DNA of 44,569 bases from Saccoglossus kowalevskii (Eukaryota; Hemichordata; Enteropneusta; Harrimaniidae), in the NCBI RefSeq assembly GCF_000003605.2, contig NW_003108585.1, positions 315,008-359,576 on the forward strand. Direction: 5' to 3'. Under the pieces are notes generated by a model. That model saw nothing but the letters and a program-made list of their open reading frames with translations, ran no database searches and was not told the DNA's origin. Shown here one piece after another: positions 9,186 through 38,928 of the stretch (position 1 is the stretch's first letter; each line of letters opens with the position of its first letter). A program made the translations under genes and the position numbers.

Positions 9186-9818
9186 GTCATAATATCTCGC
9201 AATCAGTAATAATATCTCGTAATCAGTAATCTCTCGCAAGCAGTAGTATCTCGCAATCAGTAATATCTCGCAATCAGTAATATCTCGCAATCAGTAATAT
9301 CTCGCAATCAGTAATATCTCGCAATCAGTAATATCTCGTAATCAGTAATATCTCGTAATCAGTAATATGTCGCAATCAGTAATATCTCATAATCAGTAAT
9401 ATCTCATAATCAGTAATATTTCGCAATCAGTAATATCTCATAATTAGTAATATCTCGTAATCAGTAATATCTCGCAATCAGTAATCTCGCAATAAGTAAT
9501 ATCTCGCAATCAGTAATATCTCGTAATCAGTAATATCTCGTAATCAGTAATATCTCATAATCAGTAATATCTCGTAATAAGTAATCTTTCTAGTCAGTAG
9601 TATTTCGCAATCAGTAATATCTCATAATTAGTAATATCTCATAATTAGTAATATCTCGTTATCAGTAATATCTCGCAATCAGTAATATCTCGTAATCAGT
9701 AATATCTCGCAATCAGTAATATCTCGTAATTAGTAATATCTCTCAATGCGTAATATCTCGCAATCATTAATATCTTGTAATCAGTAATACCTCACAATCA
9801 GTAATATTTCATAATCAT
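9186..9818. repeat. 17-bp minisatellite, about 37 copies
   Basis: Tandem copies of AATATCTCGCAATCAGT run with little interruption. Variants concentrate at the CG and GC positions of the TCGCAA core (TCGCAA, TCGTAA, TCATAA). Some units have small indels (for example near 9225-9245 and 9585-9600). No open frame of note runs through it. It lies about 4.5 kb beyond the last IFT74 exon I could find, so it may be intronic or intergenic. Confidence 0.97.
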
Positions 9819-14371: not shown

Positions 14372-17300
14372 ATTTCTTGAATGTGTCTCTTCTTTTCATC
14401 AAATTCATTTTATCCTCGTGTAATTTCTGGAAAAATCATGGGAAAACAATTTTGTTTTTATTTGGAGTAGTTTATACATGTACACAAGCCTGTCTTTATT
14501 ATTTGTAAATGTGCCATTATTGAATTGTTGGAACATTTACCAGGTCATCATTAAGTTGTTATCTACCTGGTTATTATGGAGTTCCAGGTCAATATTGACT
14601 TGTGACATTTAACAGGTTATCATTAAGTTGTTAGACTAAATACTATTTGTGGTAATACAGTTAAAATACAGTATATTATTGTTGTCTTGCCTGAGCTAAT
14701 ATAATACCACATTTTTAATACTATTTAATGCGTTTGGCATCAGAGAATTATGTACTACTCATTATTCAAATAGTTCTTACCTTTTTCTTGTCATCAGCTT
14801 GTTTTTTGAGAGAGTCGAGATCACTGTATGTCTTAAGTTCCTCGTTCATCTGTTTGATTTTGTCTCGTAGCGTTTCTAATTCAGCATTTATTTTGGTTTC
14901 CAGTTGTTCTACTTTCTGTAGATCCATATGTAATCGTGTACTCTCTGTAAGAAAAATCATACAAGAGATTACAGCAGGCACCAAAACAAACTGATATTTG
15001 TCTATAAATTTCCCCTGCAACATTCCTTCTTATTGGTAAATGCAAGTGATAAATATATAATCCAACAATACTGTAAAAGAGAAATTTTCACTGGGTTTAA
15101 TTTTAGTTGATTTGATCTAGTAGGCATATTCACTAGGCTTCAAATTCACTGGGTTATAGACTGAGGTAACTGCACAACGCCCTCTGTCTACAGAGTGATG
15201 AAACCTGCAAAATTTGTGTGCCATAAAATATTTAAGCGAGAAAACAATTGCCTCATCTCCCCATTTTTGGAAAACAGTTTGACAACAATTTTTTTTGTGA
15301 GACCTAAGCAGACATTCATGATTACCAATAGAGTAGCATCAATCCTCAAATACAGCTCAGATTAATACAAAACTCTAGCATTAATTACTTGTGTCTACTA
15401 ATGTCTACTTAAGAGAATTATTCATGGAATATATAAATGTATCTGTTGTAAATATAGCGTGTTTTCAGAAAAGGGTCATTGCGTAAACTACTTGGAAAAG
15501 AATGATACACATGTTTGGAAACTGATGTACTGACTCAACTTTGTAGAGAAACAATCCCTGTATTCCTTAGAAGTTTGTCGCCATGTGTTTGCCGTTTGTG
15601 TTTATGTATACTCTAGAGGTATTGATTATAGAGCAATAACCTATATGATAACATCAGATCATACCTGTTGCTAGACCTGAAGCAGTAGCTTGTGATTTCT
15701 GCATTTCGTTTTCTTTGAAACTTAAATCCTCTTGCATCCTCGCTAGTTCTTGTGGAGTTGGCATATGTTTAGTCCGACCTAGACTCTGCAATCAAAAAAT
15801 GTGTCAAGTTAAAAATAATATGCAGTTAGTGAAAGTAAATAAATTTTCCATATCAAATACGGAACTGATACATTTTAGGGTTGACGTTTCAATGAAAAAG
15901 GCTAGTCTTTTAATTTGTCAATATTGTCTTCTTTGAGCAACCGCCTCCAAACTGAAATTTCACATGCCTTTTTAAGTGACTGAACAAGAAAATAACTTGC
16001 ACAATTTTCCTGACCAAATAATCACTGTGATAAATTTAATTGTCATTTCTTATTCAGGTATCAAAAAGGCAGATGACAACAACTGAGACAAAAGAGAAAA
16101 TAACATATATAAGTCATGAAACACATCATCCAAACTTACTCTGCTGGTGTGTTCTAACAAAGCTAGTATATTCCCTTCGATAGCTGTCTTTCGTTCCTAT
16201 TTTCAAGAAGAGACAACAAATTATATTAATTTTACAGAAATTTAACATAACGAGTAAACACAACTCTGATTGACACTGATTGCATTAGGATTTTGCATTG
16301 ATTGCATTGCTGTTGCATATTGATCACATTCTGGTCACATACATAGTTTTTTCGTCTTCTTTTTAACACAGATTCAGTTGAGTCAAAGCATGTACACAAG
16401 ATCAAAGTTGATATGTCCAGAAAAACAGTCAACAAACAAGCTGCTCTCTGATTGGTTTAAGATTTAGGTGTTAGGGTTGGGTAGCCAATCAGATGTAATC
16501 TTTGTAAGTAGCTTTGCAATGACTCGGCATATTTACATCAAACATTTTAGCCACCACAGTGGGAAAACACAGACATCACTGTCTAATTGCTGTTGCATTG
16601 TGAGATCATTTCTCTAAATGACCTAATCAAGATTACTCAACAGCCTTTTTGTTACCCAGCATGGTTTGGAAAAAAAAACGCAGGATGACAATATGCAATA
16701 TTAGTGAAAAAAATAAGATAAATGTGTGACACAAATGTGGAAGTATGTGACAGGTTGAACAAAAACTACACTGAATGTAGCACACACGAAAAAAAAAGGT
16801 ACACTTACCATTTCTGCTGATTTTGTTTCTTCAAAACTTTCTAAAAATTCTATAATGAAATGAATATGAAGGTAATATAGATCTGCTGGTTGGTCACAAT
16901 TTTGTCCAAATACAAGCACAAGTTTTATATTACATAAACAGCAACGTATACCGGTAATTTGGCCAGCTCAAATTGCTGAAACTACAGAATGCACAAGCTC
17001 TAATTCGCAACAAAATTGTCATTCCATGATTAATTGAAATGTTTGACTACCAAATTTTTAATTTACCACCTACATAAACCACACTATTGACCCCCTCCCA
17101 TAAAAATATCTGTTTTGACAAATTTAGTCAAATTGAGAATGTCATTAAAGTGCCTGCGAAATGGCTGCTATTTTCACGCCTAACATTATCCATTGATACA
17201 TAAATATTATTATTTTGTTATGTTTCTAAGCATGAATTATTTTTTTAAGTGGAAAAATGTGTTTTAAACTCAATCTACGGCAACTTTATTTTTGTGTATT

Positions 17301-18618
17301 TTAAAACGAGGCTCCTCATTAGCTTCTTATTTGCATACAGAAATTCCCCTTGTGACATCAGAAGGGGAAGTCGCATGGCAGCNNNNNNNNNNNNNNNNNN
17401 NNNNNNNNNNNNNNNNNNNNNNNNNNNNNNNNNNNNNNNNNNNNNNNNNNNNNNNNNNNNNNNNNNNNNNNNNNNNNNNNNNNNNNNNNNNNNNNNNNNN
17501 NNNNNNNNNNNNNNNNNNNNNNNNNNNNNNNNNNNNNNNNNNNNNNNNNNNNNNNNNNNNNNNNNNNNNNNNNNNNNNNNNNNNNNNNNNNNNNNNNNNN
17601 NNNNNNNNNNNNNNNNNNNNNNNNNNNNNNNNNNNNNNNNNNNNNNNNNNNNNNNNNNNNNNNNNNNNNNNNNNNNNNNNNNNNNNNNNNNNNNNNNNNN
17701 NNNNNNNNNNNNNNNNNNNNNNNNNNNNNNNNNNNNNNNNNNNNNNNNNNNNNNNNNNNNNNNNNNNNNNNNNNNNNNNNNNNNNNNNNNNNNNNNNNNN
17801 NNNNNNNNNNNNNNNNNNNNNNNNNNNNNNNNNNNNNNNNNNNNNNNNNNNNNNNNNNNNNNNNNNNNNNNNNNNNNNNNNNNNNNNNNNNNNNNNNNNN
17901 NNNNNNNNNNNNNNNNNNNNNNNNNNNNNNNNNNNNNNNNNNNNNNNNNNNNNNNNNNNNNNNNNNNNNNNNNNNNNNNNNNNNNNNNNNNNNNNNNNNN
18001 NNNNNNNNNNNNNNNNNNNNNNNNNNNNNNNNNNNNNNNNNNNNNNNNNNNNNNNNNNNNNNNNNNNNNNNNNNNNNNNNNNNNNNNNNNNNNNNNNNNN
18101 NNNNNNNNNNNNNNNNNNNNNNNNNNNNNNNNNNNNNNNNNNNNNNNNNNNNNNNNNNNNNNNNNNNNNNNNNNNNNNNNNNNNNNNNNNNNNNNNNNNN
18201 NNNNNNNNNNNNNNNNNNNNNNNNNNNNNNNNNNNNNNNNNNNNNNNNNNNNNNNNNNNNNNNNNNNNNNNNNNNNNNNNNNNNNNNNNNNNNNNNNNNN
18301 NNNNNNNNNNNNNNNNNNNNNNNNNNNNNNNNNNNNNNNNNNNNNNNNNNNNNNNGCTGCAAGCATGGAGGTAAAAAAAGAACAGAGGTGTGAATTCGAC
18401 ATTCAACACAAACCACCAAACAATTCAGAAACTTTTAGCCTTCGAAAATGAAAACAATTAGCAGTGTGTACGGGCTGTGTAATTTCCTGTTTGTCCGACG
18501 CTTCGTTTTCGTGTCACTGTCAAAATTATTGCTACCTTTTACTTAACAGGGACTAAATGGTCTCTATAAAACAATAATCAGGATCGCAAAAAAAGTCAAC
18601 TCATTTGAAACACTTGCC

Positions 18619-18657
<39 letters not shown>

Positions 18658-21600
18658 GAAATCCGCCTCAGTGATCATGGTCCGGAATCTATTTCTTTCA
18701 AAAGTATTGCGCCAGGTTTATGTTGTCGGCGTTTCTCTTTAAACCTAGTTTATTTTTCATGGACGAGGACAGTTTTTCCAAAAAAATGAATCTGAGGTTA
18801 AGTGGCTTTCGTCCACTGATGTCGCACCTTCGAATCGATTAGAAATGTGTGAATACTTACACTATGACTATATGTTTCACTGCAACTGCCCACAACACAA
18901 CATCAAAAAACTCTCTCTCTCTCAAAAAAAAAAAGAAAATAGACAAAAAAAGAAAGAAAAAAAACGCCGACTGAAAAATGTATATCGTTTAAAAGTATAC
19001 TGAATGACCAGTGTTATTACGGCTCAGGGGTATGACTTCCTCTCACATTTTGGCATTTGGTGGCGCACTTTCGGCGAGAGTCGGAAATCCGGAAACAGTC
19101 GACCATTTCAGGATAGGTGGGCGTGGCTACAACATGAGAAATATCCCAAATTTACTTGGATACGAGTAATCATTTTCAGCAAAAAAATCAATAACTGCCC
19201 ATTTCAGTGGAGTACAGATCTAAAATGGGAAACGTGAGGGTGGGCATTGCACAGGCACTTTAAGCTGAATTGATTATGTAGGCAACAGTACAGATATATT
19301 TCAGTTTTGAAAATTGACATGAAATCAATAAATCGGAAAGATTATAACCCTCGAGTACATTTTTTATAATGAGTATGAAGGTAAAGTGTATTTTGTTAAT
19401 GTTAAAGACACGTTAAAGCTGAAGTAAAACAGGAGGATATGACACATTGAGAGGAAGAGGAGGAAGTTGAGAAAAGTCTTACCATTCATGGTTTCTTCTC
19501 TCTTTTTCAATTCTTTGTATTTCATATTTCTTTCACCTGACATTTAAAACAAACATACATATAAAGCATTGGTGACAAAGCATAATCTTGTGTTGGGAGT
19601 GAATAATACCAGACTTTATAATTGCATGTAAATTTATACAATTACATGTAGAATTTACACCAAAAAGGTGTGTCCTACAGGCATCTATAAATGTACCCAC
19701 AAATGTAATCTTCTTGTTTGTAAAGAATTGTACACTTGAATTTCAAACTCTCTATATTTATACTTTATACTAGAAAAAGCAATCCTTGGATTTGTGAGTG
19801 AAATTTTAATGAACAGCAACAAGTTTTGAAATGGTGGACTGACATTTAGAAGAATTACTTTTCTAGTATTGCCAGTACCAGTGTAGTTGAATCAGATTCA
19901 TATTTTAGAGCACACTTTTAGAAAAGATCTGAAAACAATAGACGTGTATAAACCACGAAAGATGGACGCTAATGCAATTGAATGTGGACGGTGAACAAAT
20001 ATCATTGACCGACCTTCATGACCTGGAAAATAGTTGGTCAATAAATTAAAGCAGGAGCTGACTGACTATGGTTTATAGTATTTAATTTTAGAAAACAGCT
20101 CATTGTTTGTTGCTATTTGACTATATTTGAAAAATTACCCTGCTTTTCAATTTTTTTACATTGTTATTTGAAAAATTACCCTGCTTTTCAATTTTTTTAC
20201 ATTGTTATTTGAAAAATTACCCTGCTTTTCAATTTGTTTACATTGTTATTTACTTGGAGTTTAAATGTGCTAGGGGACATAATAATATACCTCTACTTCC
20301 AAGTTTCAATTAAATGACTAACATTTAGTATTAAACAAATGACCTTGCTGTTGGTAGAGCTCCGCTGTAATTGACAAGTGCAGAGGACAGTGGCAGTTAC
20401 TAGGTGGATATTTTATTTAAGGTAGAGATGCAGGTTGGGGGACTATATTTCTAATTGCCTCTAATTACTGTAATTACATGAGTAAAATATACTTTTTACC
20501 CATCAAGTTATATATCATTGGGAAGAGTTTTAGCTAAACTTTTGAGTTTTATGGTTTACAATAATGTACTATGATACCATATTAAGTGATGTTGATTTTG
20601 GGTTAAAATCATGCATTTTAGGTGAAAGTGCACTTAAAACTATTTAACTTTTGAATGCATACCCAGATTTTGATTTAAAAACATTTTTTTAAAACTTCTG
20701 TTTACTCGGAGCATAATGGCTTATTTATTAGTGTTTCCCTTGAAAAGTTTTTACACAGTGCTCTTTGAAACATTCACATTTTATAAATCATTCACAGATA
20801 ACAGAGCCGCTAATTGGCCGCTCTATTGTTTCTGTTCCAGTGAAGACAGTGAAAAAGTAGTCCCATTACAACAGTGTTTGTAAATATTTGTATGTGTAAC
20901 AATTATGGGTTAAGAAATAAAATTAATATTATTTGCAGCTATTATGGGTAACTTTACATACCTTGATGTTCTTCTAAATCCATCTCGAGGTGTTGAATTT
21001 CTTCGGTTATATTATTAATCTGCTCTTTCAACTCTTGAATTCTAAGCAATAAGAATATGAAGGTATTAACAAATGCTGTCACTTCCATACAAATGCAATA
21101 CTTAGTTTAGAATAGGAAAATATAGGGTATTTTTTGCTCCAGTGCAGCTTGTATTGCTCCACATCTAATAGCTGAAACTCGTGAACTGTTTTAACAATCA
21201 TAGGATTCATGTCTGACTGAATATAATACGACTTTTTCATCCCTTACCACTGAACACAATTTTGAGATGAAGAAATAATATAACTATAAAATACAAACCC
21301 CAAAATGCAATTTTTTCCCCATTTTCCATTTTCCTGAAAAATTTGTTTGGTGATATTTTTTCAAACTTTTGTAAGCGAATAATCTTTCATTTGGTCCATA
21401 TCTCCATAACATGGTGGCTATCGACAATGACTAAATTTTGTTAAATGTTGATTATGTATGTACCTTCATTTCTTCCTAATGCACAAACATGCATATCCAG
21501 TCAGTATCAGTACCGTAACATATATTCAATGGAAATTGAATGGCATGTAAAATGCAGTATCAAATCAAATAGCCAGCAGTTACTCAAGTTTCAGTGAAAC

Positions 21601-24600
21601 AAAAAAATTAATTGATGTGCATATATACTAGAGCTCTATACCAAACTTTGAGCAAAATCTGTCACAGCTTTTGTGAGAAATGATGACGAATGTAAAGTTG
21701 GATGTGCTTAATAACAACAGTTTTAAGATTACGTGTAAACAGGAACTAAAAATCAACTTACTGTCTTTCCATACTGGCTATTTCTTGATTATCTTCTTTG
21801 ACTTGTTTTAATAATCTTTCTCTTTCTTCAGCAGGTGATCCTTTTTGTTGTTCTTCGTCCACTATACTTGCTTTCTTGGCTTCTAGTTCATGTAATTGTT
21901 CATACAATCTAACAGCTTCCTGTTTTACTTGTGAGGTCGATAGTTCCTATGAATCAAGGGATTCAATTTAGACTGAATTCATGCAATGCTTTTCTTCTGA
22001 CAACCCACTGACTGAGGCAATGCTTTTATTCTGACAACCCCCACCTTTATTAAAGTATAATTAAATAATTTAAAATGTTTGAAATGATTTTTAAAGTTAC
22101 ATTCCCACTTGATCTGAGTCCTGTAAGCATTATATAGCCTTATATTGTGTATAATTCATGAGAAATTCTATCCAAATAAAATCAAGTTCGAAATTCTACT
22201 GAGATAAATTGCCATCAGTTAAAACAATGTTTGAGATTAGACAAGAGGACCTTCAGTACAGGATAGCTTCAGCGCTCCAATATTTCAGGATTTGTTGCCA
22301 TACCAACTGATTTTATCATTTTTCATGGTGATCACATAGTGAGAGGTGTTCTGCATATTACACAAAATATCATTTGATTATCTTCTTCATTTATTTATTA
22401 ATGTTTTACAGGTGACAGTTACTGACACTGAACATCATAGTTGTCTTTCCTTACTGTTTTTGATATGCAAATTGCAAACACAAACAGTCACAGTACATAT
22501 ACATATAGCACATTATGCCACTAAAACACCATCCCACGTTTTTAAATACTTGTCAGGGCTATGTGACCGTCTTCCAAGCATATTGGAATTGCAGACAATT
22601 TAACACACTATCCCGACATCAACCAGTTCAAAACAAGAGCATTATAATATAGATTTGCATTGTTTGGTGAACTTAATGAAAACACACAATACCTGGTATG
22701 ATTCTAATAAGAACTTGCATTCAACCTCAGTAAAATACATAATGAGGAGTAATGTAATTGGGAAAAATGTGTAAACATGTAGGCAACAGGAACACATCCA
22801 AGATGACAGAATGTTAAATTGCCAAAGAGAATGAACCGTAATAAAACTTATTGAACAGGATCTGCCAGGAAATGAGGTGTTGGCCAAATAAAAAGACCAT
22901 AGCAGATGGAGATGTGGAATGGAAATTATCTTACAAAAAACCCTTCATGCTTGAAACGAGGCAAGATTTTTAACCAATACCCTAGTAGTTACAGTGTTAA
23001 ATGCTTTAGGTGGAATTAAGTTTCACTAAAAAGACATTTTTGCTGTTTTGTATGAAGTTTAATTTTTTAGTGATTTTTGATGAGTTGAATGTAAAATACA
23101 GGGAAAAAAAAAGTATTTTCACTGGATTTAAATTTCATTGATTCATCTGTCTAGTGAAAATAAGGTACTTTTCAGTAAAACAAAGAACTTACATCTTCTA
23201 GATTGTCTCTTTTGGTATTCAAGGCATCTAATTCCTGTTGTTTGGCTTCAAGATCTCTCAACAAAGTTTCATTTGTAACTTTAAGCTGCATGTATTTGTT
23301 TTTCATTGTAGGACTCTGTAGAGAAAAGTGTAACATCAACAACTCATCTGCTATTTCAGATTGATTGTAAGCATCACAGTCGGTTGTGCAGTACATGTAT
23401 TTTACACTTGTTGTATATGATGCAAAACCACAATGTACGACTGTGAAGATTTAACATCATCAAAATTCAACTTGCCTAATTTTTTTTCTACAATCAAACC
23501 ATGCCATTCATAGATGACTGACAAGCTCTTGTGAGTACCGTAACACGAGTGATTACGGGAGTTATTTAAATAAAAATCGCTTCAAAATAGTCTTAATTGC
23601 AAGATTATCAGCTCTCATGGACTTTGATTTGCAAGCGATAAGGGAGTAGAGACTAGACCAGTCTTTTCAAACAGCATATTATTTCAAAGCTTTTGACCAA
23701 GACCTGTTAACAATGAACAATTATATCCAATTGAACCAAAATTAAGAAATTATAGAAAAATATATAAAATTTTATACTAGAGCTGATAGAAATAACCAAC
23801 TCACCATATCATCCACAAGACTATGGCTATACTAGAGCCTGATAGAAATAACCAACTCACCATATCATCCACAAGACTATGGCTATACTAGAGCTGATAG
23901 AAATAACCAACTCACCATATCATCCACAAGACTGTGGCTATACTAGAGCCTGATAGAAATAACCAACTCACCATATCATCCACAAGACTATGGCTATACT
24001 AGAGCCTGATAGAAATAACCAACTCACCATATCATCCACAAGACTATGGCTATACTAGAGCCTGATAGAAATAACCAACTCACCATATCATCCACAAGAC
24101 TATGGCTATACTAGAGCCTGATAGAAATAACCAACTCACCATATCATCCACAAGACTATGGCTATACTAGAGCCTGATAGAAATAACCAACTCACCATAT
24201 CATCCACAAGACTATCTGCCATTCGTTTGCACTGGTCAATTTCAACCTCAACAAGCTGAATTTGTTGCTCTTTCCTGGAAAGAAATAGATGTATATGTAG
24301 GTTTCTAATTGTTTCCAATGTTGTGTGTGTATAGGATTCACATCAAAATTATTATTTCTATCAAACATTAGGCAACATAAATAGATGGTACCCAGGAATT
24401 CAGTCCTTTATATTTTGAAAGCACTCAATGTAAATTTGTTACACCCACTAAAAGCCACCAAGCATTGAATATAAAAATAAAACATTGTGTTTTTTCTGAC
24501 AGATTACAGTACTGAGGAAAATATCTGTTTTGGATGTGCATGTCACTCTCTGCTTATGCCCTATGCAATAACCCTAGAGCTATTGGCTACAAAAGCTTTC

Positions 24601-27600
24601 AAAATGTTACTTTAATAAGCACCAGTAACAAATGAAAGTGGTTTTCATTTGAGAGTTCTGATGGTATTTCAAATATACCATGTATGCTTACTAATAGCCA
24701 ATGTGCTCTCTAAGATTTTACTTGAAAATCATACATTGATATAGTGATCTTCAAAAATATCTTACTATCGTAGTAATTTGTCAATATGCAGTTTTTTATA
24801 TAGTTTATGCCTTGACACCAATTTTTTTTTTACTCAAAATAGGGTAAATGTTTTCACACGCATTCTCTGTAATTTTCACTGAATTCAATCTTAATTTTGT
24901 TTCAAACAAACAAAATGTGACATTACTTCTAGTTTTTGTTCAAAAAGTTTAAATTTTCACAAGATTGTATGTGAAAAAGAGCAGACTATGAATAGAACTA
25001 TTTTGTGGATGGTGCTCAGCTTTTGCACTCAAAGGGTAAAAGAATCTCCCTACAATCGTATACAATCTTAATTTTATTCTTGAATACCTCTCTTCTCAGT
25101 AGTCAACAAGCTGACACAATTTGATTTTTTGGGGATTCCACTTTGACTCAAGATCTGTACAGAATAAGCCCTATAAGAGGGCATACTTTATAATAAAGCA
25201 TTAAATTACTCACTCTTGTCGTTCAGTGAATATAGCATCTATACTTTTGGCTTCCATGTCATTTTGTACTTTGAGCTGAAAATATTACAATTATAAGAGA
25301 GTTACACAGAGAAATGTACAATGTAAGTTTCAATAAATCCATTGTAATCCACAGCTCATTGCAATGAATTGTTTTATGTAGACAGAAACAGTACAGGGAC
25401 AGATGGCTAGGAATGCCAATAATGAGAAGAATCTACAATAATGTCACTGATGTTAGTTGGACCATAGACCCTCCTCTACTAGTAGGTTCTATGGTTGGAC
25501 AAGCTAATCATATACACAAACTGATAAAGTCAAATTTATTTGGATTTTAGGTATCACTTTTTCACTATTCTTTTTTACTTTCAATACAATTTTTGTGCTT
25601 TTTGTTTTACTGTCATAAATCTGACCAACTTCCATATGGAGTCCCATAGAAATCTCACAATTCTCAGAATGCTTGTTTCAAACAACAAAGCACTGTGCTG
25701 TGTATGTACACATTATGGTGGCGACATATTCTAGAAGCAAAACATTCTCTGATATTGGTTGGTAGTTTACTCTGAATGAACAGGATCTCCAATCGCAGTC
25801 GATCAGATGTGTGAAAGTGGATAACCGGTAAAACTAAAAATGCTAGAACAACAATTCTAGTTTTAATCAGATTATGGACCATGCATATATAACCTTGAAC
25901 TTTTATTATTTATAAATTTGTTTAATTATTCTTACCTCATTGAAATCTTCTAATACAACATCCATTTCAGTGTCAGTGTTCAGCTTGTCAACTAACTAGA
26001 GAAGTGAACAAAAATATTTACCACGTTACAGAAAATACTGTCAATTGCTCAAAGTTTTTTCAGTGAATTTTGCAAACTTTTATAACATTGAAAATGTCAA
26101 CAGGGTTCTAAAGACAGAGTCAGCGTGCCTTTCACAAAACCTAGTCCTGAAAAAAAATTGTGAAAATCCCTAGTAATGACACGTAGTTACAAGTGTCCCA
26201 AAGATTTTGACCACAGTATTAATTAAGAAGGTACAAATTAATCTCTATTATTTAAAAATAACAGCAGGTACCAATTCCCCATTCCTGAATTACCATCAGA
26301 CTGGATATAATTCTATTTGCGCATACGTAACCTATCTGGCAAACCGGCGAGGGTAGGACAAAAATATAAAATGTCAAAAGAGCACCAGTTCAGAAACCCC
26401 CAATTAACACATTTACAATGTCCAACCCTTATATGTACATAGTACCAGTAATGAGAAATACCTTGCTCACTCTCCCGAATAAAATAAAAATAACTTACAG
26501 TATTGTAATCACCTAGATGACCCTGTAAGTCCTTGAGCTCTGCAGCTAAAGCTTCCGCACTATAAAATAAATGAGCATAATACAATGTACCACAGGTAAA
26601 TGCAGATAAAGGTAACTTCATCTCAAATGATATTGAACTTGAGTAGAGCGATAGTTCTCAGTCTACTAATAGAAAAGCCTGGAAAACAGGCAACCCTTCA
26701 TGATCAAATGTCAACCTCAGATTTGTTTTTCAGACATGATACAAAGTTTCAGAGACAATGCATTTAGATAAAGAAAATAACTTGTGCTGCTGTACAGCTA
26801 GTGAAGGTACAGCAAGTTGCACATTGTTAAGCGCATTTCATTTAAATTCCTTTGTTCCTTTGTTATTTCTTTGTAGACGCAATGGACACAGCTACCTACA
26901 AGTCTTGAACAACATTGTAAGAATATTGAAAATGATAAAAGTACATTTCAGTATACAAATAGCTATTAATATTGAAATAATAATGATGTGTTGATTTAAT
27001 ACAGCCAAAATGTTCAAACTATCAATACAAATGTAACAACTCACGTTTTCTCATAAGACAAGTATTGTGAATTTTCTTGATTGAAATGATCCACTTCTTT
27101 CTGTAGTTTTGCACTTTCTGATTCCAAATCATGAATTTTGGTTCTTAACAAACCAAGGAAGTATGACTGATCTCTGACCATTCTGTTAAGCTCTATAAAA
27201 AATAATAATGGCATTGTAATAAGTCATGTATATTGTTTGTACACACACAAAAATGAGGGGGGAGGGTCCAGAAACTTAAAACACAAAACTGTTAAAACAT
27301 TTCATGACAATATTAACAAAATAAGGTTAAGACAGAATTTCAGAATTTGTACACAATACATTATATTATTAGACTATATGGTAAACCTGTACAGGTGTGG
27401 TAATGCATGCATTACTTGACATCACATTGTGGTAGTATTGATTTCCATCTAGTCATATTTTATATGTCATTGTATAGCAACAAGTTGTGCATGTGATAAT
27501 GTACACAGAGAAAAACTGAATAAATCAACTGAATTTGAAGTCGAAGTTACTACCAGGTACTTACTTCTGGGTCCCATTTTCATACCACCTAGACCCTGCT

Positions 27601-30185
27601 GTGTAATTGGTCTATCCGCAACATTGATCCTAGAATCAAGCACTGTTAAGATAAAAATACATAAGCGCATTAAATATCACAACAACTCAACAAAACACTA
27701 GTTCACTAGATATTTGGTGACAGGTCTTGTCATGCATAGGTTTAAGGTGTGTTCTATTAACACTAATATATAACTGAATAAATGAGTGAAAATAAAGTCA
27801 AAATTAAAACCCAAATGAAGTTTTTAAACTGATCACATTTATTACAATTAAACTAAAAGAATATAAACTATCTTATGGTTGAATTGAAAGAAAATTGCCA
27901 AATCAAAAAATGGCTACATAGTAAATGTACATGTTAATTATTTTATCATAGCGCAATGAAGAACTGTGTTTTGAACGAATATGTAATTAATATTGAATAT
28001 TATTATATACCTGTCACAATATCCCCATAAGTGCTGTAATTTTGCAGTAATGCACAGGGTTAATTGCATCCAATCTTATTTGGAGATGTGAATTCCAAAT
28101 ACGGAACGACTACATTGCATTTCATGCCTAGAAAGTTCAAATAGTTTTCACCATTTTGCTCGACTCTGGACTTCTTAAACCAGAGAAAATACAATAATAA
28201 TCGTTTTATGAGGATATCGGAAAGTATGCATGATTGCATTGACCTCTGCTGCACGTTGGTTGATACAATTGCAGTAACTGTTGTGTTGCGATATACTCAT
28301 AATAATGGCATACTATAATGATGTAAACACACTATTAGTCTTGATAACATACCCCCACTTCCACCAGCAGCAGCACCACCTCTTGATTCAGGTCTTGAAG
28401 TCCCTGGGGGCTAAAAATATACAAGTAGAACATCATATTTGTGCCTTTACATAGTGAAGGATTCTATGACAAGACTGTCTATCAGTGATGAAATAAACCT
28501 AATTTTGCAAGAAACATTTTTTTATGAGTCAGTCAGTGAAAATTGTAAAAATTTTATGCAAGTATCATGCTTAATTTCATTTTAGTGTAGAAATATTGCT
28601 AATTGCCAAATCATTAAGTATGAACACTGCAGGAATACGCCCTGCAAATTAGACAAATTTTCTCAACTTTGAAAGGCTGAGAGAAAGAACAGTGCATGTG
28701 CATCATTAATGTTTATAAATAAATATGACTACCATATTTGTTCGAATAGAAGAGCTTCTATTGGAGATTACTGAATCATTAAAATATTACTTATTTTGAC
28801 CACAGAAACACTGCTGTGATTCATATATAGACTACTACCAATAATAGAGAGGTTGATGGTTTTTATGAATAATTTCCTGGTTGTCATAAACTAAGTATCA
28901 TAATGATATGCTAAATTTAAAATACATGTATGAATATTTCCCCAACAAGCTAAAATTACTTCTAGATACACATATTAATTCAAGCTTTATAACTTACTGG
29001 GCCACCAGCAGCGCCGGTTGTTCTGGCTGAGGGTCCAGGTTGCCTAGTCATTGGACGGCTTGTCGTAGGTCTACGACCGGCAGTTGGTGGGCGGCTCCTG
29101 TAAGTTTAAGATCATTTTTATGTTGGTTAATTAGATGGGAATTCAAGAATTGTATATTAAATGAATATCTGTTGACCTTTTTATGTACATGTATGACACG
29201 AATACAATTTTTTTTCTATTTTCGAGGGGGTTGATTTCAGTCTTTTTTTTATTAAAATGGTTGGAAATGTGTTGAGCCAAGGATTTATGAGCATACATGG
29301 TGTAGTAACATACAACAATGCGAATTGAAGAATTCATCTGAATTGCAAGATGATCACGTTTTTAAAAAGGGAAAATGCGCGAGTCTGTGAAAAAACTGGT
29401 CAACGTTTGTTTCAGGCTATTTTTGCTGGTGTATTTTAAAAACATGTGTTATCCATTTTCCGACAACAGTAATTTCACTCATTTTTGGCAATTCCAAGCA
29501 TCCACTGTATAATGTGATGGTTAAAATATGTATGATTGAACTGCATTTGGAGATCATAGATATCAAAGTTGCATAACCTGATATTATAATAAATCGTTTT
29601 TATTAGAATATAATAGTGATATTCTGTGTAAATTGGTGTCACAGATAAAGGAAATTTTGGATCTGTATTACATAACGTAGAAAGGGGTCAACATTTTACC
29701 ATGCTTTGGCTTAATTTTCACTATACTCGTTTTAATGCTCATCTAACATTACTTAACATTAACGTGTAGTGCGCTAATAAGACCCCTTTAAATGTCGTGG
29801 GAATGTCACTATTCTGCTGTAGTTTTACTACTATTATTTTCATTACTGTGTTGTGTGTCAATCGTACAATAAATCTCATCCATCTTTCCTGTTTGGTCTA
29901 ATATTTATCTAAGCAAGACCTCAACGTCATCGATCCCACTCGGCACCGCACGTCCTTATACACATTATCGTCATAACCTATGCTCCGTCATAATATAACA
30001 CTACTCTTATATTTGCGTTGTTTAAAAATCTAAATCGTCAAAAATTTGACGATAAACAGTGACAACTCATCATAGAAGAAGAAATTGTGAGCGACATGTT
30101 GTTGTCAACGAAACGTAAACAGAACTGTGTTTAGCTATATTCACACTGAAAATATAAACGAAATTAACCCACTCGGTACTCACAT
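14372..30185 (-). CDS. Intraflagellar transport protein 74 (IFT74), 18 exons, 3' end not found
   Basis: Core IFT-B coiled-coil subunit. It pairs with IFT81, and its basic N-terminus helps bind tubulin cargo for cilium assembly. Exons in transcript order: 30184-30185 (AT of the start codon, preceded by 5' UTR), 28998-29097, 28353-28410, 27565-27642, 27045-27192, 26499-26559, 25936-25995, 25214-25275, 24196-24274, 23193-23315, 21762-21946, 20962-21041, 19483-19536, 16809-16849, 16140-16196, 15665-15785, 14781-14944, 14372-14426. All have GT-AG borders and join in one frame of 1528 nt (~509 residues). Residues 1-79 are rich in Arg, Pro and Gly, ending in the family hallmark [14 protein letters not shown]. 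Residues ~80-509 are coiled coil with recognisable family segments, among them [66 protein letters not shown] and [10 protein letters not shown]. Vertebrate IFT74 is about 600 residues, so roughly 80 C-terminal residues are missing. Confidence in the family is very high, and in individual borders high. Confidence 0.97.
17383..18355. other. Assembly gap (973 N)
   Basis: Unresolved bases inside the IFT74 intron and inside the TTAA-flanked element. The four long open frames that cross it have no biological meaning. The IFT74 reading frame joins correctly across this intron, so the gap need not hide a coding exon. Confidence 0.99.
18619..18655. repeat. (TC)n microsatellite
   Basis: An uninterrupted CT dinucleotide run of about 35 bp. 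It lies within the TTAA-flanked element, about 260 bp from the gap. A shorter CT run and A/G-rich low-complexity sequence follow at 18908-18965. Confidence 0.95.
20129..20251. repeat. 41-bp tandem repeat, three copies
   Basis: Three head-to-tail copies of a 41-bp unit beginning GAAAAATTACCCTGCTTTTC start at 20129, 20170 and 20211. They lie in the IFT74 intron between the exons at 20962-21041 and 19483-19536. The copies are nearly identical, so the expansion is recent. Confidence 0.95.
23042..23145. repeat. Dispersed repeat, copy B
   Basis: Second copy of the interspersed repeat described at 2150-2255, in the same orientation. It lies in the IFT74 intron just downstream, in transcript sense, of exon 10 (23193-23315). 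Confidence 0.6.
23773..24215. repeat. 56-bp minisatellite that copies the end of IFT74 exon 9 and its splice donor
   Basis: Eight near-identical units (period 56 bp, once 55 bp). The word CTCACC, which is the donor GGTGAG on the minus strand, starts at 23800, 23856, 23911, 23967, 24023, 24079, 24135 and 24191. The copy at 24191 is the authentic donor of exon 9. Each unit also carries about 20 nt of the exon end (TAGTCTTGTGGATGATATG in transcript sense), so every copy reproduces both sides of the 5' splice site. Copies at 23856 and 23967 follow slightly variant units (missing C, or G for A). The unit length is not a multiple of three, and the frame read through the first intronic unit meets a TGA at its copied donor. 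Any downstream donor would therefore give a truncated product. Confidence 0.97.
25461..25497. repeat. Short inverted repeat in IFT74 intron
   Basis: ACCATAGACCCT and AGGTTCTATGGT form a near-perfect stem with a short spacer containing CTACTAGTAG. It is a small hairpin-type repeat, perhaps the relic of a MITE. It lies in the intron between exon 8 (25214-25275) and exon 7 (25936-25995). Confidence 0.6.
28998..29097 (-). CDS. IFT74 exon 2, carries the G of the split start codon
   Basis: The acceptor CTTACAG at 29098-29104 is followed by G, AGC, CGC, CCA. Joined to the end of exon 1 (AT at 30185-30184) this gives ATG followed by Ser-Arg-Pro-Pro-Thr-Ala-Gly-Arg-Arg. The exon encodes the basic, proline-rich start of the tubulin-binding region and ends at a consensus GTAAGT donor. 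Exon 1 upstream of the AT contains an in-frame TAA about 45 nt back and no in-frame ATG before the split codon. A downstream ATG in this exon (codon 17) would lose the conserved basic residues, so the split start is preferred. Confidence 0.88.
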
Positions 30186-30300
30186 GTTTGTTGATTTTAG
30201 TCTGTCGACGGAAATGTTAATATTCGGTTACAATTAACGAGTTAGAGTGATATTTCTGCCAGGTGATTTTACAATTTACCCGCTACTCGACAGGCTCAAG
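30184..30300 (-). other. IFT74 exon 1 (5' UTR plus first two bases of the start codon)
   Basis: Transcript-sense sequence ends AAATCAACAAACAT at a consensus GTGAGT donor (30183-30178). The upstream limit is not visible; about 30300 is a guess. All bases but the last two are non-coding. In frame with the start codon the exon has a stop about 45 nt upstream. Confidence 0.7.
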
Positions 30301-30617
30301 AATTTCGCATACAGCATTCTGGGTAAAACGGTCAGAGGTGACTGCGCATGTGCAAAAATGAGTTTTCAGTTCACATTACGTTGCTGTAGAACAAACTTTA
30401 TATATGAACTCAAAAAAAAAAATTAACAATTCAAAGAATGTCGGATGTCTCAGTTACTTAAATGAAAATTGACGGCTTGTTTTACACCAGAAAATATTCC
30501 CAAATTCTCCGAAAACTTACACGTTGTAGTACTCACTTCTGAAAGAATAAATGACAGTGCTATCATTGTGACGTCACAGTGTTGCATATAAAGTCGTTCC
30601 AACACTTGTTTTTCACA
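30300..30617. promoter_or_regulatory. Divergent promoter region between IFT74 and the EF-hand gene
   Basis: The two genes point away from each other with roughly 0.5 kb between the IFT74 exon 1 donor and the EF-hand start codon. Motifs seen: GCATTCTGGG (30314-30323), half of a ZNF143/SBS site; TGCGCATGTGC (30343-30353), one mismatch from an NRF1 site; and GTTGCTGTAGAAC (30380-30392), a weak RFX X-box-like sequence that is one base short. Motif functions are known from vertebrates. Their use here is inference. Confidence 0.5.
30569..30593 (+). promoter_or_regulatory. CRE and TATA box of the EF-hand gene
   Basis: A perfect palindromic CRE, TGACGTCA (30569-30576), is followed 10 bp later by TATAAAG (30587-30593). 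The expected start of transcription is near 30617, leaving a 5' UTR of about 120 nt before the ATG at 30736. The arrangement suggests a cAMP/CREB-responsive core promoter for the plus-strand gene. Confidence 0.6.
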
Positions 30618-30735
30618 CGCGACCACAGTCTGATCTTCGCTAAAAACGTGCAAAATAACTAATTCTGCAACGTGGGCATTTGTTTCCAAATAACAGACGT
30701 TTTTTCGCTGCTGTCAAGATATTCGGCGTGATATT

Positions 30736-33700
30736 ATGGGATCCGGGGCGTCGACCTTGAAGGAGAACGACGTTAAACGCAAAATCCAGGCAATGGGGAA
30801 AGTCAATGCGGCTCTCGGCGCAATGAAGAGCAACCATGACACTGGAGCCGATGGCAATTCGTCGCAGAAAGAAATTACAAGTGCAAAATTATCAGAACCA
30901 GAAATCGATAAAGCTAGCGCTGGGTGGGTGAAGATATCAGCATGGAATAAGCTTACATTCGGTTTTAAGTAAGTACGTTTACAATTTGTTTCGTGCATTA
31001 TAATAATATAATATAATGAATGTATTGCATCCTTAGAAATAATTTCCATTGGTTGATCGCAATAAAATGTTAGTAATAAAGTACAATACATATAAAACTA
31101 AAGTAAAAGTAAAATGTCAGTTATTGTTATTTCTGATTTCAAATATTTTGTATAAGTATTCACCAACTTGTCTTATTAGTACGTCTTCTCTTGAACTCAT
31201 AATATATTTAAATATCTGGTCATCACTTTCCAATTCTTCTGGAATATTGATATTATTAAATAACTTTTGTCTTTCTGTTTGGTACCTAAGACATTCCATG
31301 AAGAGATGTTCTTCATTTTCAATTTTGATCCTGGAACATTGTTTACAGATTCTGTATTCTAAAGGTATTTTGGGTTGGGTATGTCTACCCTTTTCAATTT
31401 CTAATACATGACTGCTTATTCTGAAACGAATCATTATGATTTTATGTTTCAGATTACATAAGAGCAAATACGGTTCAAAAGTGTATGAGTCTTTAAACTC
31501 TATATACGTTCTCAGTTTTCTATTATCATTTGTTACACCCAACTTCTAGAACTCTACATACCTTTGTCGGATGTTTTTTCGTATGTTTTTTTTATTTTAC
31601 TGTGTGGTAATTTTTGAGGTATGAAAGACGAGGACAAGTGTCGTAACTATGTGATGTAAGGACAATATACGTTCATTATGCCAGTTTTCCGACACCTAAT
31701 TATGCGATTTTTGTTATATTCACTATTTGAAAACTACGATCGTTAGTTTGTTTCTGGGGAGCACATAATGACTGGAATAGGTAGGACATATGACAAATCA
31801 AAAACAACCATCTTCCACCGACTGATTTTTAAATAATAATTTACATCCCTCTTCTATGAAACGCAGACTTTTCGAAAAAATCGAAAAAATCAAAACAACT
31901 TTATTTTAGAGAAATATATTTAGATATACATGCATATATGCATTTCAGTTTGATTTGTTTGTTTGTTCGGGTAGTATTTCCAAAATAACAAGGTCTTCCA
32001 CTGTCAAAACACTGTCTTGTTCTTTTGTTATATTTTGACTTATGAGTAACAACCAGTCTTCGAAAAATTATCATCCCATTTTTGGTTTTCGCGAACATGC
32101 GAACTTAAAAAAGTATACCCTTCTCCGCGAAATCCAGACCCCACATGCGTATCACTCGACCAGCCAAGTCCCTCCCTGTTGGCACTTGAACGGCGGATAG
32201 CAATGCAAGTTGTGTGCATCGAGTCCACTGGGGCTTGTCAACTGACGGTGAATCCCTGTGATTGCCCATGTTTTGTGGTCGAGTCACCGTTGTGGTGCAG
32301 TACGTGCCCGGACACATGCTGTCATTGCTGGTCAGTGGTGGATCCAGCAAAATGTATTGGGGGGGGGGGGCAAGCTTCGCTTAAGATATACGGAGCGAAA
32401 ATCGCAGAGAAGCTATGTGTAATCCAGATGATANNNNNNNNNNNNNNNNNNNNNNNNNNNNNNNNNNNNNNNNNNNNNNNNNNNNNNNNNNNNNNNNNNN
32501 NNNNNNNNNNNNNNNNNNNNNNNNNNNNNNNNNNNNNNNNNNNNNNNNNNNNNNNNNNNNNNNNNNNNNNNNNNNNNNNNNNNNNNNNNNNNNNNNNNNN
32601 NNNNNNNNNNNNNNNNNNNNNNNNNNNNNNNNNNNNNNNNNNNNNNNNNNNNNNNNNNNNNNNGCCCCCCCTCTGGATCCACCACTGTTGCTGGTGCATC
32701 GAGTATTATCACATTTGCATATTTACACACCGATTATAGAAAACGATAAAACTGTCTTCGGTAGCGGGCAGAAACAATATGTATCAACAGGATTAGCGAA
32801 GGAATAGTGAGGGAATTGCTCCTTTACGTCCCGGGAAGTGACCGTACCACCGGAGATGTCTCTATTGGGTTATTTATTTAATAACATATTATACGCAACA
32901 CCTTCTGCCAAATTAATATAATTGTTTTCCTTTAATACTTGTTTTCATTCTTTTTCCATGTTTTATTGATTTATATTACTTTGTTTTTCTTATAAATCGC
33001 CAGTTTCTTCAAAAGTAGTTTTTTTTAAATCATTTTCGTGCTTTATTTTTTTTTTTTTTTTTTTAGGAATTTTTATAGAATTTGTATGTTTTAAATATGT
33101 GTTCTAGTAGTTAGTGTAATCCCATGCTTGGCTTCCAGGGTCGGTGACACCACGCAGCCCCTCGTGCATGCCAGTGGTGACGCAACCAAAACAATATGGA
33201 TACTAATCGTACTCAAATATTCAAAAGTAACAAATAATTTCATACATAAATGTCTCATTAAATATCTTTTAGAAATATTTAGGAATATATGCTTGTAATA
33301 AACATGTGTGTTGTCACTGCTGGCGTAGTGTATAGGCTGTGAAAAAAGTAACATAGTTTCCTCATATACACCACTGTTATTTGCTTGTTGGCTCAGATAA
33401 AGCGGGAGGGTCGTCACCTGCGCGCGCGCGGGAATTGAGTCCCAAGTGATGATAACAACACACGCTAAAAACGCAAAGGCTCATGGGTAGACGCTTGCTT
33501 GTAAACAATGACACGCTATGGCCATCCTCAGATTAGTATTACTAGTCTGAGGGCCATCTGACACATGCGCAGGTGACGACACCACCGCTTTAAATTAATG
33601 ACGTCGGTCGTCACTGGATACACCCCGATGTTTTTCAATATATATTCACAGAACATTACTAAAGTATATTTAATCAGTGTATGTATGTTCACAGTAATAA

Positions 33701-36700: not shown

Positions 36701-38928
36701 TTTGTAATACATAATATTATTTATGAGAAATGTTTAGTATTATGTGTTTGTACTTCATACCACATATCATGTTATGCTCGTAGTTCAAGGACCTCGATTG
36801 CAACAGCGACGGAGTCGTCTCGTGGTGGGAATTTATGTATGCTGAGGGACTAAAACTGCTGTTTCGAAAAAGATCTCAGGTATTGCTCAATATTCTCTTT
36901 GACACTTAACAGCGTCACCAACGAACAAAGACAATACGACTCTCGTTTATTTGTGAAATTTTGATTTGACGTATGACATGATCGTCAGTTACAAAGGGTT
37001 TTGAATTGAATCTCTTGTTGAGTTCCTAGAAATAAACAGAAATATTTGCATAATTTGTATAATCACCATTTTGTGTCACAGTTGTCATATATTATTATAA
37101 GCAGTGTACATTATGCTTTGACAAAATATACTAGTATTGAGAAATGTTTCTCAAACAGACATCCTTATTCATAATTCTATCGAGTACGGTTGAACCGCGG
37201 ATAATAATATTTTTTATTATTATCTAAGGTTACACTAAAGACTAAAGTGCATATAAAAGATGCATCTCATTTGCATAAGTATTATCTCAATGTTGACACC
37301 ACTCACACAATGATCATCCCATCAAATATGTCATGCTCTTCTCACACCTATACTTTTCATATTGAAAGAGAGAATTGGTAGAGTATTTACAGCCGAGGGA
37401 AATTCAGAGAATGAGACATTACTTTCGTCAATACGATAACGGAAATAGGGGAATAATCACGAAGAAGAATGCCAGACAAGCGTTCCATAGGTGGTGTCAG
37501 GATTTAGGGTAAGATCAGCATTGAGTACGAAGTGCGCGAGTTCTCGCTCACTGGGTAGATCACGCGGAGTTTTCGCTTACTGGGTAGATCACGCAGAGTT
37601 CTCGCTCAATGAGTGGATAATGCGGAGTTCTCGCTCACTGGGTGAATCACGCGGAGTTCTCGTTCACTGGGTGGATCACGCGGATTCTCGTTCACTGGGT
37701 ATATCATGTGGAGTTCTCCTTCAGTGAGTGAAAATTATCGAGATAACGGCTAAAATGGAGATATGGGCCAAGTACTCGATTGATGATATACTAAAAAGTC
37801 TAATGTGCATTTACCTATATATAACTAGTACATACAAATAAATAACACAGCACAAACAATATTTTTTCCCCGATAAATCATATACTATAAAGTTGTTATC
37901 AAGATAACATACTAGTATTTCAAATTTAATGTTCAACTCATACTCAAAACTTCCTCTTCAAAGTTTGTTTTATGCCGTTTTTTGTGACAATTAAGTAATT
38001 CGTAATTACATGGGAATATATGTAGCTATCGATTGATATTAACGAGTCGAAAAATATTTACACTTTTTTTTTTTACAGACTCTCTCTTCCACCTTCAAAA
38101 TCATGCACCATAATGGCAGATTCAACTGACCCAAATGCAAATAGGTATAACAATTTACTTGGATTATTCTTTGAATTTGAAGGACAGCAAAGTCAAGTGC
38201 ACGTGACGAGGCAGTCATAACACAGGGGGAATGATATTACATGTGAAGATATTATCGTTTCAAGTGAACAGTGCGAGTAGAGTTGTGGTCCTAATTTATC
38301 TGTTCTTTCCTACGAGAAATGAAATCAACTGCGATTTCCTTTCAATTATTCCCAATTTCGATATTTTATTACATAAATACGAAAAATCTTTATTTATTTA
38401 TTTGACAAAGATGCATGCAAATATTACAATATTGAAGCAGTTTGAGAAAAATTCAATTTTTGCACACTACTGAGCACATTTTATATGATGACAAACTATT
38501 ATCGTCCTGGAAACATTTTTTTAAATGATTTCCAATAATCCCTTTCACCCTGTGTTACAAAGCAAAAGTTTGAGATAATATTCGCACTATAGAAACCAGT
38601 GTAAACATGATAATTTTGACCAATTTTTATTTCATTTCGTATCTCGATAAATCATACAATGACCTTTTTTTGTTTATTTTCACGTGGAAGTAATTTACAG
38701 TAATACTGCATAACATGGTATATTTCTCTTTCCAATAGGTTGATCAGTTGGGAGGTGTTTCTTCGGGACAATGCTCTCAGTGTGATCAGTACACGTCCCA
38801 ACGCAACGGACACCCATTCCTTCTTGGTCACCGAGGACATGATGCACGATGTCCGTATGCAGGCGGGCAAAGAAGTGTGGAATAAAAAAGAATTCAGTTC
38901 ACAACGAATGTCCACGTTCAAGTGGTGA
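30736..38928 (+). CDS. N-myristoylated EF-hand calcium-binding protein, 8 exons, 357 aa
   Basis: Exons: 30736-30968, 33695-33881, 35008-35086, 35828-35934, 36784-36879, 37393-37508, 38079-38144, 38739-38928. All borders are GT-AG and the frame is continuous (1074 nt with TGA). The start MGSGAST fits the N-myristoylation pattern (Gly2, Ser6), so membrane attachment is likely. Residues ~8-140 are Lys/Glu-rich without a known domain. EF-hand 1 has its loop at residues 163-174 (DSNEDSKITLDE), rebuilt across the exon 3/4 junction. EF-hand 2 loop is residues 207-218 (DCNSDGVVSWWE), with its helix across the exon 4/5 junction. A degenerate hand follows at 249-260 (DNGNRGIITKKN; no acidic residue at position 12), and a poor fourth near 285-300. 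Only two hands look able to bind calcium. The family is not recognised beyond EF-hand; it may be a calcium sensor or adaptor. ATTAAA at 38973-38978 is a likely polyadenylation signal. Confidence 0.88.
31049..31560 (-). mobile_element. LINE 3' remnant (C-terminal zinc-knuckle part), antisense in EF-hand intron 1
   Basis: A 141-aa minus-strand frame (31117-31542) reads like the extreme C-terminus of non-LTR retrotransposon polyproteins. It has a segment HKIIMIRFRISSHVLEIEKGR followed by a Cys-x2-Cys...His-x4-Cys cluster (CKQC, then EEHLFMEC). Nothing of the reverse transcriptase core is present, so it is 5'-truncated. It carries AATAAA-rich sequence at its 3' side. A related but different tail lies at ~40910-41757. 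Confidence 0.8.
31570..32332. other. EF-hand intron 1 sequence with a GC-richer block
   Basis: No gene supported. From about 32100 to 32332 base composition is noticeably GC-richer than its surroundings, and both strands have open frames (65-81 aa) without recognisable domains. The block directly abuts the hAT-like element and may be a piece of another transposon. Confidence 0.4.
32333..32687. mobile_element. hAT-like non-autonomous transposon with 8-bp target duplication
   Basis: The left end CAGTGGTGGATCCAG (32333-32347) and the right end (CTGGATCCACCACTG, ending 32687) are perfect inverted repeats of 15 bp. The element is flanked by identical 8-bp sequences TTGCTGGT at 32325-32332 and 32688-32695. 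Ends starting CAG and an 8-bp duplication are typical of the hAT superfamily. G- and C-runs next to the ends (near 32359 and 32665) would pair with each other. An assembly gap of 230 N sits in the middle. The host is intron 1 of the EF-hand gene. Confidence 0.85.
32434..32663. other. Assembly gap (230 N)
   Basis: Unresolved bases within the hAT-like element. Open frames across it (186, 125, 105 and 130 aa) are artefacts. Confidence 0.99.
33526..33552. repeat. 27-bp near-perfect palindrome
   Basis: CCTCAGATTAGTA and TACTAGTCTGAGG pair with one mismatch around a single central base. The flanks (GGCCATC before, GGCCATC after in the same direction) do not extend the stem perfectly. It lies in intron 1 of the EF-hand gene, about 140 bp before exon 2. 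Confidence 0.7.
34560..34684. mobile_element. Hairpin MITE in EF-hand intron 2
   Basis: The arms begin AGGTTATTACGAGGATACC at 34560 and end with its exact reverse complement at 34684. Homology of the arms continues inward through (G)TATGCAC and GACAGTAC for about 45 bp each. The centre holds a second small stem, CGACC...GGTCG, so the whole element can fold into one long hairpin. AT-rich flanks (ATAATA/TATTAT) extend the symmetry by a few bases. No coding capacity. Confidence 0.85.
36181..36414 (+). CDS. Candidate cassette exon of the EF-hand gene (78 codons)
   Basis: TTTAG precedes 36181 and a GTAACG donor follows 36414. The segment is exactly 78 codons, open, and phase 0 at both ends, so it could be included or skipped between exons 4 and 5 without shifting the frame. 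It encodes RMEHYFRDKNKSRGNLVLNE, which resembles RMRHYFRQYDNGNRGIITKK encoded by 37393-37508 of the same gene, so it looks like a degenerate EF-hand unit. When it is skipped, exons 4 and 5 join to make a textbook EF-hand entering helix. The polypyrimidine tract is weak. It may be an alternative exon or a decaying duplicated one. Confidence 0.5.
37531..37729. repeat. 29-bp tandem repeat, about 7 copies
   Basis: Copies of a unit like GAGTTCTCGCTCACTGGGTA followed by GATCACGCG, with substitutions, start about 20 bp after the splice donor of EF-hand exon 6 (37509). The GC-rich, CpG-containing unit differs from the AT-rich intron. The frame read through it (37491-37727) is a by-product. Confidence 0.93.

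What the first reader, a model, noticed from the sequence alone, without database searches (positions are those of the whole stretch)
23773..24215. Serial 5' splice sites: a minisatellite has copied an IFT74 exon end and donor eight times
The 56-bp unit spans the exon 9/intron border, so each copy carries both ~20 nt of exon sequence and the GTGAGT donor. The spliceosome therefore sees eight almost identical donors in a row. The first must be used for a correct protein, since exon 9 joins exon 10 in frame only from 24196. Use of the next donor adds 56 nt, shifts the frame and reaches a TGA. Array length could thus tune IFT74 output through truncated, decay-prone transcripts. I recall intronic minisatellites that span exon borders being reported in amphioxus, but that comparison is from memory.
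Basis: partly seen in the sequence, partly recalled or inferred. Interest (0 to 1): 0.85.

Follow-up and report, generated by a model that had tools for sequence, protein, structure and literature searches.

The report
Repeated splice donor in IFT74 gene
In an animal's cilia gene IFT74, a 56-base stretch containing the end of an exon and its splice signal has been repeated so that eight identical signals stand in a row; only the first gives a normal protein, and similar arrays have been described before in lancelets and humans.

Summary
On the minus strand, 23773-24215 is a 56-bp minisatellite of 7.9 copies (98% match). It begins inside IFT74 exon 9 and carries the exon end and GTGAGT donor in all eight copies: the real one plus seven extra. 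Only the first donor (last exon base 24196) yields the conserved protein. The seven later donors, and intron retention, end at an early stop after 18-19 foreign residues. One correction: donor 4 adds 168 nt and keeps frame with exon 10, but still meets the stop. The donor is fourth strongest of 17 in the gene, so the decoys are not weak. Of 49 exon borders checked, only this one is clearly duplicated.

The structure matches amphioxus 'mirages' and resembles the human IFI6 minisatellite: a new member of a known kind. Adh, troponin C and globin mirages are reported not to disturb splicing. That array length tunes IFT74 output is untested here: no RNA, no second allele, organism unknown. Likeliest is a young, nearly neutral array whose first donor dominates, perhaps with some leaky, decay-prone transcripts.

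The parts
24196..24274 (-). IFT74 exon 9 (79 nt); its last 20 nt (24215-24196) are the first part of array copy 1
   Evidence: gene model; PDB IFT74 alignments without a gap at the joint
23773..24215 (-). 56-bp minisatellite, 7.9 copies, spanning the exon 9/intron 9 border
24187..24198 (-). authentic donor ATG|GTGAGTTGG (last exon base 24196)
24131..24142 (-). decoy donor 2 (last exon-type base 24140); +56 nt, TGA at the joint
24075..24086 (-). decoy donor 3 (24084); +112 nt, early stop
24019..24030 (-). decoy donor 4 (24028); +168 nt, frame kept but early stop
23963..23974 (-). decoy donor 5 (23972); +224 nt, early stop
23907..23918 (-). decoy donor 6 (23916); +280 nt, early stop; copy 6 carries one T>C and lacks one G
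23852..23863 (-). decoy donor 7 (23861); +335 nt, early stop
23796..23807 (-). decoy donor 8 (23805); +391 nt, early stop; last, truncated copy
23316..24195 (-). IFT74 intron 9 (880 nt), 423 nt of it array
23193..23315 (-). IFT74 exon 10; joins DDM|SPTM in phase 0

Best explanation
A recent tandem duplication of 56 bp covering the last 20 nt of IFT74 exon 9 and about the first 36 nt of intron 9 expanded into an eight-copy minisatellite (the copies are shown; how they arose is inferred). It persists because everything past the first donor lies within an intron. The spliceosome most likely uses mainly the first, exon-proximal donor at 24196 (inferred), helped by the upstream exon and by the much shorter exon it defines (79 nt against 135-470 nt). 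The seven decoys are at most leaky, and their transcripts carry an early stop and would be expected to decay (stop shown; decay inferred). It is a mirage-type array with little effect on the gene at this length.
For: Array, borders and donors. Only the first donor gives the IFT74 protein; 7 of 7 others and intron retention stop at codon 235 or 236. The exon 9/10 joint shows no gap against two PDB IFT74 chains. The copies are nearly free of changes (one substitution in the exon-derived part, two single-base losses in the intron-derived part), as expected of young copies; this is a description, not a test of selection. No older degenerate copies were detected in the rest of intron 9 (p 0.97) or in intron 8 (p 0.86), with mononucleotide shuffles. 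Amphioxus Adh3, TnC and globin mirages are reported not to disturb regular splicing, and the authors infer the same for PGBD5: passages. Biallelic human IFT74 splice-site variants go with a lethal skeletal ciliopathy (passages), so an allele that mostly misspliced would be selected against (inference). Predicted accessibility of the first donor is the highest or tied in both folding measures, by a small margin.
Against: No transcript data. The decoys are as strong as the real donor: U1 duplex -9.2 kcal/mol, fourth of 17 donors in the gene (U1 end recalled). Folding barely separates the donors (global unpaired 0.28 for the first, 0.13-0.28 for the others; local 0.34 against 0.22-0.31). SRSF1 can favour the intron-proximal of two competing donors (passages), which would mean the last decoy, not the first donor. 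PMC3087553 says copied splice signals could act as cryptic sites giving aberrant transcripts. The other 15 modelled introns hold only 1 GTRAGT against 5.6 in shuffles, a value as low in 3.3% of 300 shuffles, which hints that strong decoys are costly, though the antisense strand also holds only 3.
Confidence: 0.65

Rival explanations
1. Tuning: the eight donors compete, a fraction of transcripts use decoys, carry the early stop and decay, so array length sets IFT74 output.
For: All seven decoys are strong and all give an early stop. In human IFI6 two downstream repeat units are said to serve as donors (passage in PMC4526556). In MIR137HG, VNTR length is reported to correlate with use of alternative donors (passages), though there the donors lie outside the repeat.
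Against: Amphioxus Adh3, TnC and globin mirages are reported not to interfere with regular splicing. No RNA or length polymorphism could be examined here. The pattern of changes among copies gives no positive sign that the decoys are maintained (not a formal test).
Confidence: 0.15
2. Inert passenger: the decoys are never used at a detectable level and the array has no effect at all.
For: Published amphioxus mirages.
Against: Eight strong identical donors within 391 nt make some leakage plausible.
Confidence: 0.15
3. In-frame microexons: an acceptor (CTCTAG) inside each copy together with the copy's donor would make a 27-nt, stop-free, in-frame exon (YSHSLVDDM), so copies could add nine residues each to the coiled coil.
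For: The reading frame allows it in the four copies printed (2, 6, 7, 8).
Against: The acceptor is poor and lies 7 nt (6 in the shorter copy) past another AG with a better pyrimidine stretch, whose use leads to a stop (printed for copy 7, read by eye for the others); the gap between neighbouring 27-nt exons is only 28-29 nt. The two PDB IFT74 chains show no insertion at the joint.
Confidence: 0.02
4. Assembly artefact: the copy number (not the border-spanning repeat) is wrong because of misassembly.
For: The window has two gaps, 17383-18355 and 32434-32663, so the assembly is not finished. A mirage was aberrantly assembled in the amphioxus draft (passage).
Against: The array is short (443 bp) and copies 6 and 8 carry distinguishing variants. 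The sequencing method is not known.
Confidence: 0.03

Closest known systems
Amphioxus 'mirages' (Adh3, troponin C, globins BflGb6/BflGb9, PGBD5)
   Same: Minisatellite-like tandem copies of an exon-intron border that include the splice signal; [quoted passage not shown] The unit here, 56 bp, falls in the reported Adh3 range of 10-72 bp.
   Different: Different gene. The organism is not known; G+C here is 34%, lower than the amphioxus value I recall (about 41%), so it may lie outside lancelets. More uniform copies than the 81-100% identity reported for BflGb6.
Human IFI6 (G1P3, 6-16) minisatellite with multiple splice donors (Turri et al. 1995)
   Same: A minisatellite supplies serial splice donors at an exon end.
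   Different: In IFI6 downstream units are reported to be used and to give isoforms (one passage in PMC4526556; the original paper is not held). Here all downstream donors lead to a stop.
Human internal tandem repeats at exon-intron borders in segmental duplications (PMC2812944)
   Same: Tandem repeats across a border that can change splicing (passages).
   Different: Those are described as forming novel introns or being retained in exons of young paralogues; here an existing donor is copied into its own intron.

Membership tests
Mirage (amphioxus exon-intron border minisatellite) | Tandem copies of a unit that spans an exon-intron border | tested here: met
Mirage (amphioxus exon-intron border minisatellite) | Copies carry splice signals | tested here: met
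   8 of 8 copies carry ATG|GTGAGT
Mirage (amphioxus exon-intron border minisatellite) | Length instability between haplotypes or cells | not testable with these tools
   one sequence only; the genome search did not complete in any of seven tries
Mirage (amphioxus exon-intron border minisatellite) | Regular splicing undisturbed | not testable with these tools
   no RNA data
Mirage (amphioxus exon-intron border minisatellite) | Found in a cephalochordate | not testable with these tools
   organism unnamed; 34% G+C
IFI6-type serial-donor minisatellite | Downstream repeat donors used in mRNA | not testable with these tools
   no RNA data
Intron gain by tandem genomic duplication | Duplicated AGGT proto-splice site serving as donor and acceptor | tested here: not met
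   donor is ATG|GTGAGT; in the four copies printed (2, 6, 7, 8) no AG is followed by GT; copies 1-5 and 7 are identical

The most novel reading that the evidence does not exclude
The array is a length-variable dial on a cilia gene: each added copy adds a strong decoy donor that diverts a fraction of IFT74 pre-mRNA into decay, so unstable minisatellite length gives heritable, possibly somatic, variation in IFT74 dose. It would be a length-dependent counterpart of the IFI6 array, and possibly a mirage outside the lancelets.
Probability: 0.12. Interest if true: 0.65.

Novelty: new member of a known kind. Interest (0 to 1): 0.35.

Why it matters
Eight identical donors in nearly the same local sequence, differing mainly in distance from the exon, are a natural test of how the spliceosome chooses among equal 5' splice sites, a question usually approached with artificial minigenes. 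It also adds a ciliary housekeeping gene to the short list of genes with border-spanning minisatellites. If the organism is not a lancelet, it would widen the known range of mirages.

Tried and rejected
Second mirage: the 29-bp array at 37538-37718 starts 29 nt past the first intron base (37509) of a donor in a neighbouring gene and looked similar by eye. A local alignment of that border against its surroundings gave score 17 against a shuffle mean of 17.6 (p 0.66), so I rejected it. Of 49 borders tested, only IFT74 exon 9 stands out clearly (score 100 against a shuffle maximum of 28). The next ones are weak for 49 tests: exon 18 and 17 acceptors, which match each other (score 29, p 0.005 and 0.01), exon 3 donor (p 0.015) and exon 5 acceptor (p 0.05). 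The border set is incomplete: IFT74 exon 1, any IFT74 exons past 14372 and some borders of the neighbour gene were not included.

Recursive splicing: no AG|GT in the four copies printed. RNA folding as the reason for first-donor choice: differences too small. UAG triplets: 1 in the 40 nt before the real donor against 2-3 before the decoys; I recall UAG as the core of hnRNP A1 sites, and the hnRNP A1 preference for intron-distal donors is stated in PMC5585400 (passage). This is only a lead.

I saw no border-spanning minisatellite in IFT74 in the listings, but no search was aimed at that exact claim, and one search listed 8 of 37 papers. Of every paper cited I saw passages returned by the find function only, none in full. 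PMC3618361 and PMC2915984 only cite Turri et al. Pfam found no family in a 61-residue piece of IFT74, so the gene name rests on the PDB match.

Full report
Observation. Tandem Repeats Finder reports a 56-bp array at 23773-24215 with 7.9 copies and 98% matches. On the minus strand a copy reads ATAGTCTTGTGGATGATATG|GTGAGTTGGTTATTTCTATCAGGCTCTAGTATAGCC, where the bar is the exon 9/intron 9 border in the first copy. The exon-end plus donor core occurs eight times, with last exon-type bases 24196, 24140, 24084, 24028, 23972, 23916, 23861 and 23805 and spacings 56,56,56,56,56,55,56. A 26-nt probe with up to three mismatches finds these eight sites and no others in the window; 100 shuffles give none. 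Copies 1-5 and 7 are identical, copies 6 and 8 lack one G, copy 6 has one T>C, and copy 8 is truncated to 52 nt.

Gene. Seventeen coding exons on the minus strand (first acceptor corrected to 29097, last modelled exon ending at 14372) join into one open frame of 509 residues. The protein matches two IFT74 sequences in the PDB: 8bd7_G, E 6e-56, and 6ian_A, E 1.6e-20. The printed alignments show no gap at the exon 9/10 joint (DDM|SPTM); in 6ian_A a five-residue gap lies further downstream. This supports 24196 as the true exon end. The start codon is taken as split between a first exon ending near 30184 and exon 2; that was read by eye and the two letters were added. IFT74 exons beyond 14372 were not sought.

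Consequences of donor choice. I simulated splicing from each of the eight donors to exon 10. Donor 1 gives the open frame. Donor 2 adds 56 nt and meets TGA exactly at the joint after 18 foreign residues. Donors 3-8 (adding 112, 168, 224, 280, 335 and 391 nt) stop after 19 foreign residues at a TGA within the second copy's own donor; intron retention stops there too. So 7 of 7 decoys give an early stop, including donor 4, whose 168 nt is a multiple of three. This corrects the finding's statement that the frame is kept only from 24196. Further exon junctions lie downstream in the gene model, so decay of such transcripts is expected from general knowledge, but not shown.

Strength and density. 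With the U1 5' end (recalled) the donor's duplex energy is -9.2 kcal/mol, fourth strongest of the 17 donors. Intron 9 holds 7 internal GTRAGT sites; the other 15 modelled introns hold 1 in total. In these 15 introns, trimmed at their ends, dinucleotide shuffles give 5.6 on average and 3.3% of 300 shuffles are as low as 1; the antisense strand has 3. This is a weak hint that strong decoy donors are usually avoided.

How special is the place? Of 49 exon borders tested against 800 nt on each side, only this one has a clear duplicate (score 100 against a shuffle maximum of 28). But an interval of this size contains one of these borders in 32% of 42,039 placements, and exactly one in 12%. The surprise lies in the structure, not in the coincidence of position. 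No degenerate older copies were detected in the rest of intron 9 or in intron 8. The few changes (one in exon-derived sequence, two losses in intron-derived sequence) suggest young copies; they are too few to test for selection.

What decides which donor is used? Not sequence strength, since the eight are identical over the 26 nt probed. Predicted folding differs little: mean unpaired probability 0.28 for the first donor and 0.13-0.28 for the others over the whole region, 0.34 against 0.22-0.31 in 120-nt windows. What differs is the upstream context: the first donor follows 59 nt of unique exon, the decoys follow intronic repeat with 2-3 UAG triplets in the 40 nt before them against 1. The exon would be 79 nt with donor 1 and 135-470 nt with the others. 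Against first-donor use, PMC5585400 (passages) says SRSF1 activates the intron-proximal of two competing donors and hnRNP A1 the intron-distal one; in its minigenes, giving the upstream position the stronger downstream donor raised use of the upstream site. I infer that exon definition favours the first donor; this is not shown.

Comparison with what is known. Passages of PMC3087553 describe tandem repeats spanning exon-intron borders in amphioxus Adh3 and globin genes, called mirages, with length variation and, at Adh3, somatic instability. They say the Adh3 data and globin RT-PCR suggest no interference with regular splicing, while noting that the copied signals could be used as cryptic sites. 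[quoted passage not shown] A passage of PMC4526556 says that in human IFI6 two downstream repeat units serve as splice donors, citing Turri et al. 1995, which is not held. Passages of PMC2812944 describe repeats at exon-intron borders in human duplicated genes. Passages of PMC10298753 report biallelic IFT74 splice-site variants with a lethal skeletal ciliopathy, so correct splicing of this gene matters in humans. The present case is therefore a new member of a known kind. Intron gain through AGGT duplication (passages of PMC3443670) does not fit, because no AG|GT is present in the copies examined.

Limits. No RNA, no second allele, no relatives: the genome search tool did not answer in seven tries.

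Verdict. Confirmed structure, with a sound reading of the coding consequences; the regulatory claim remains open and is not the likeliest. Interest 0.35.

Noticed in passing
37538-37718: A 29-bp tandem array (6.3 copies) starts 29 nt past the first intron base of a donor (37509) in a neighbouring gene on the + strand; tested as a second mirage and not supported (p 0.66). One exon of that gene (36784-36879) has a weak EF-hand match below the curated cut-off (17 against 30 bits).
   Followed up: yes
9190-9817: A 17-bp tandem array of about 37 copies, far downstream of the last IFT74 exon modelled.
   Followed up: no
14372-29097: The other 15 modelled IFT74 introns hold only one GTRAGT against 5.6 expected from shuffles, a possible avoidance of decoy donors.
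   Followed up: partly
14426 and 14944: The acceptor regions of two neighbouring IFT74 exons resemble each other (score 29, p 0.005 and 0.01 among 49 tests), perhaps by chance.
   Followed up: no
39660-40844: A single-exon reading frame with a sulfotransferase domain (PF00685, E 9.8e-14).
   Followed up: partly
30184-30735: IFT74 and the neighbouring + strand gene appear to lie head to head with a short shared upstream region (read by eye).
   Followed up: no
20124-20251: A 41-bp tandem repeat of 3.1 copies in another IFT74 intron (20961-19537), away from its borders.
   Followed up: no
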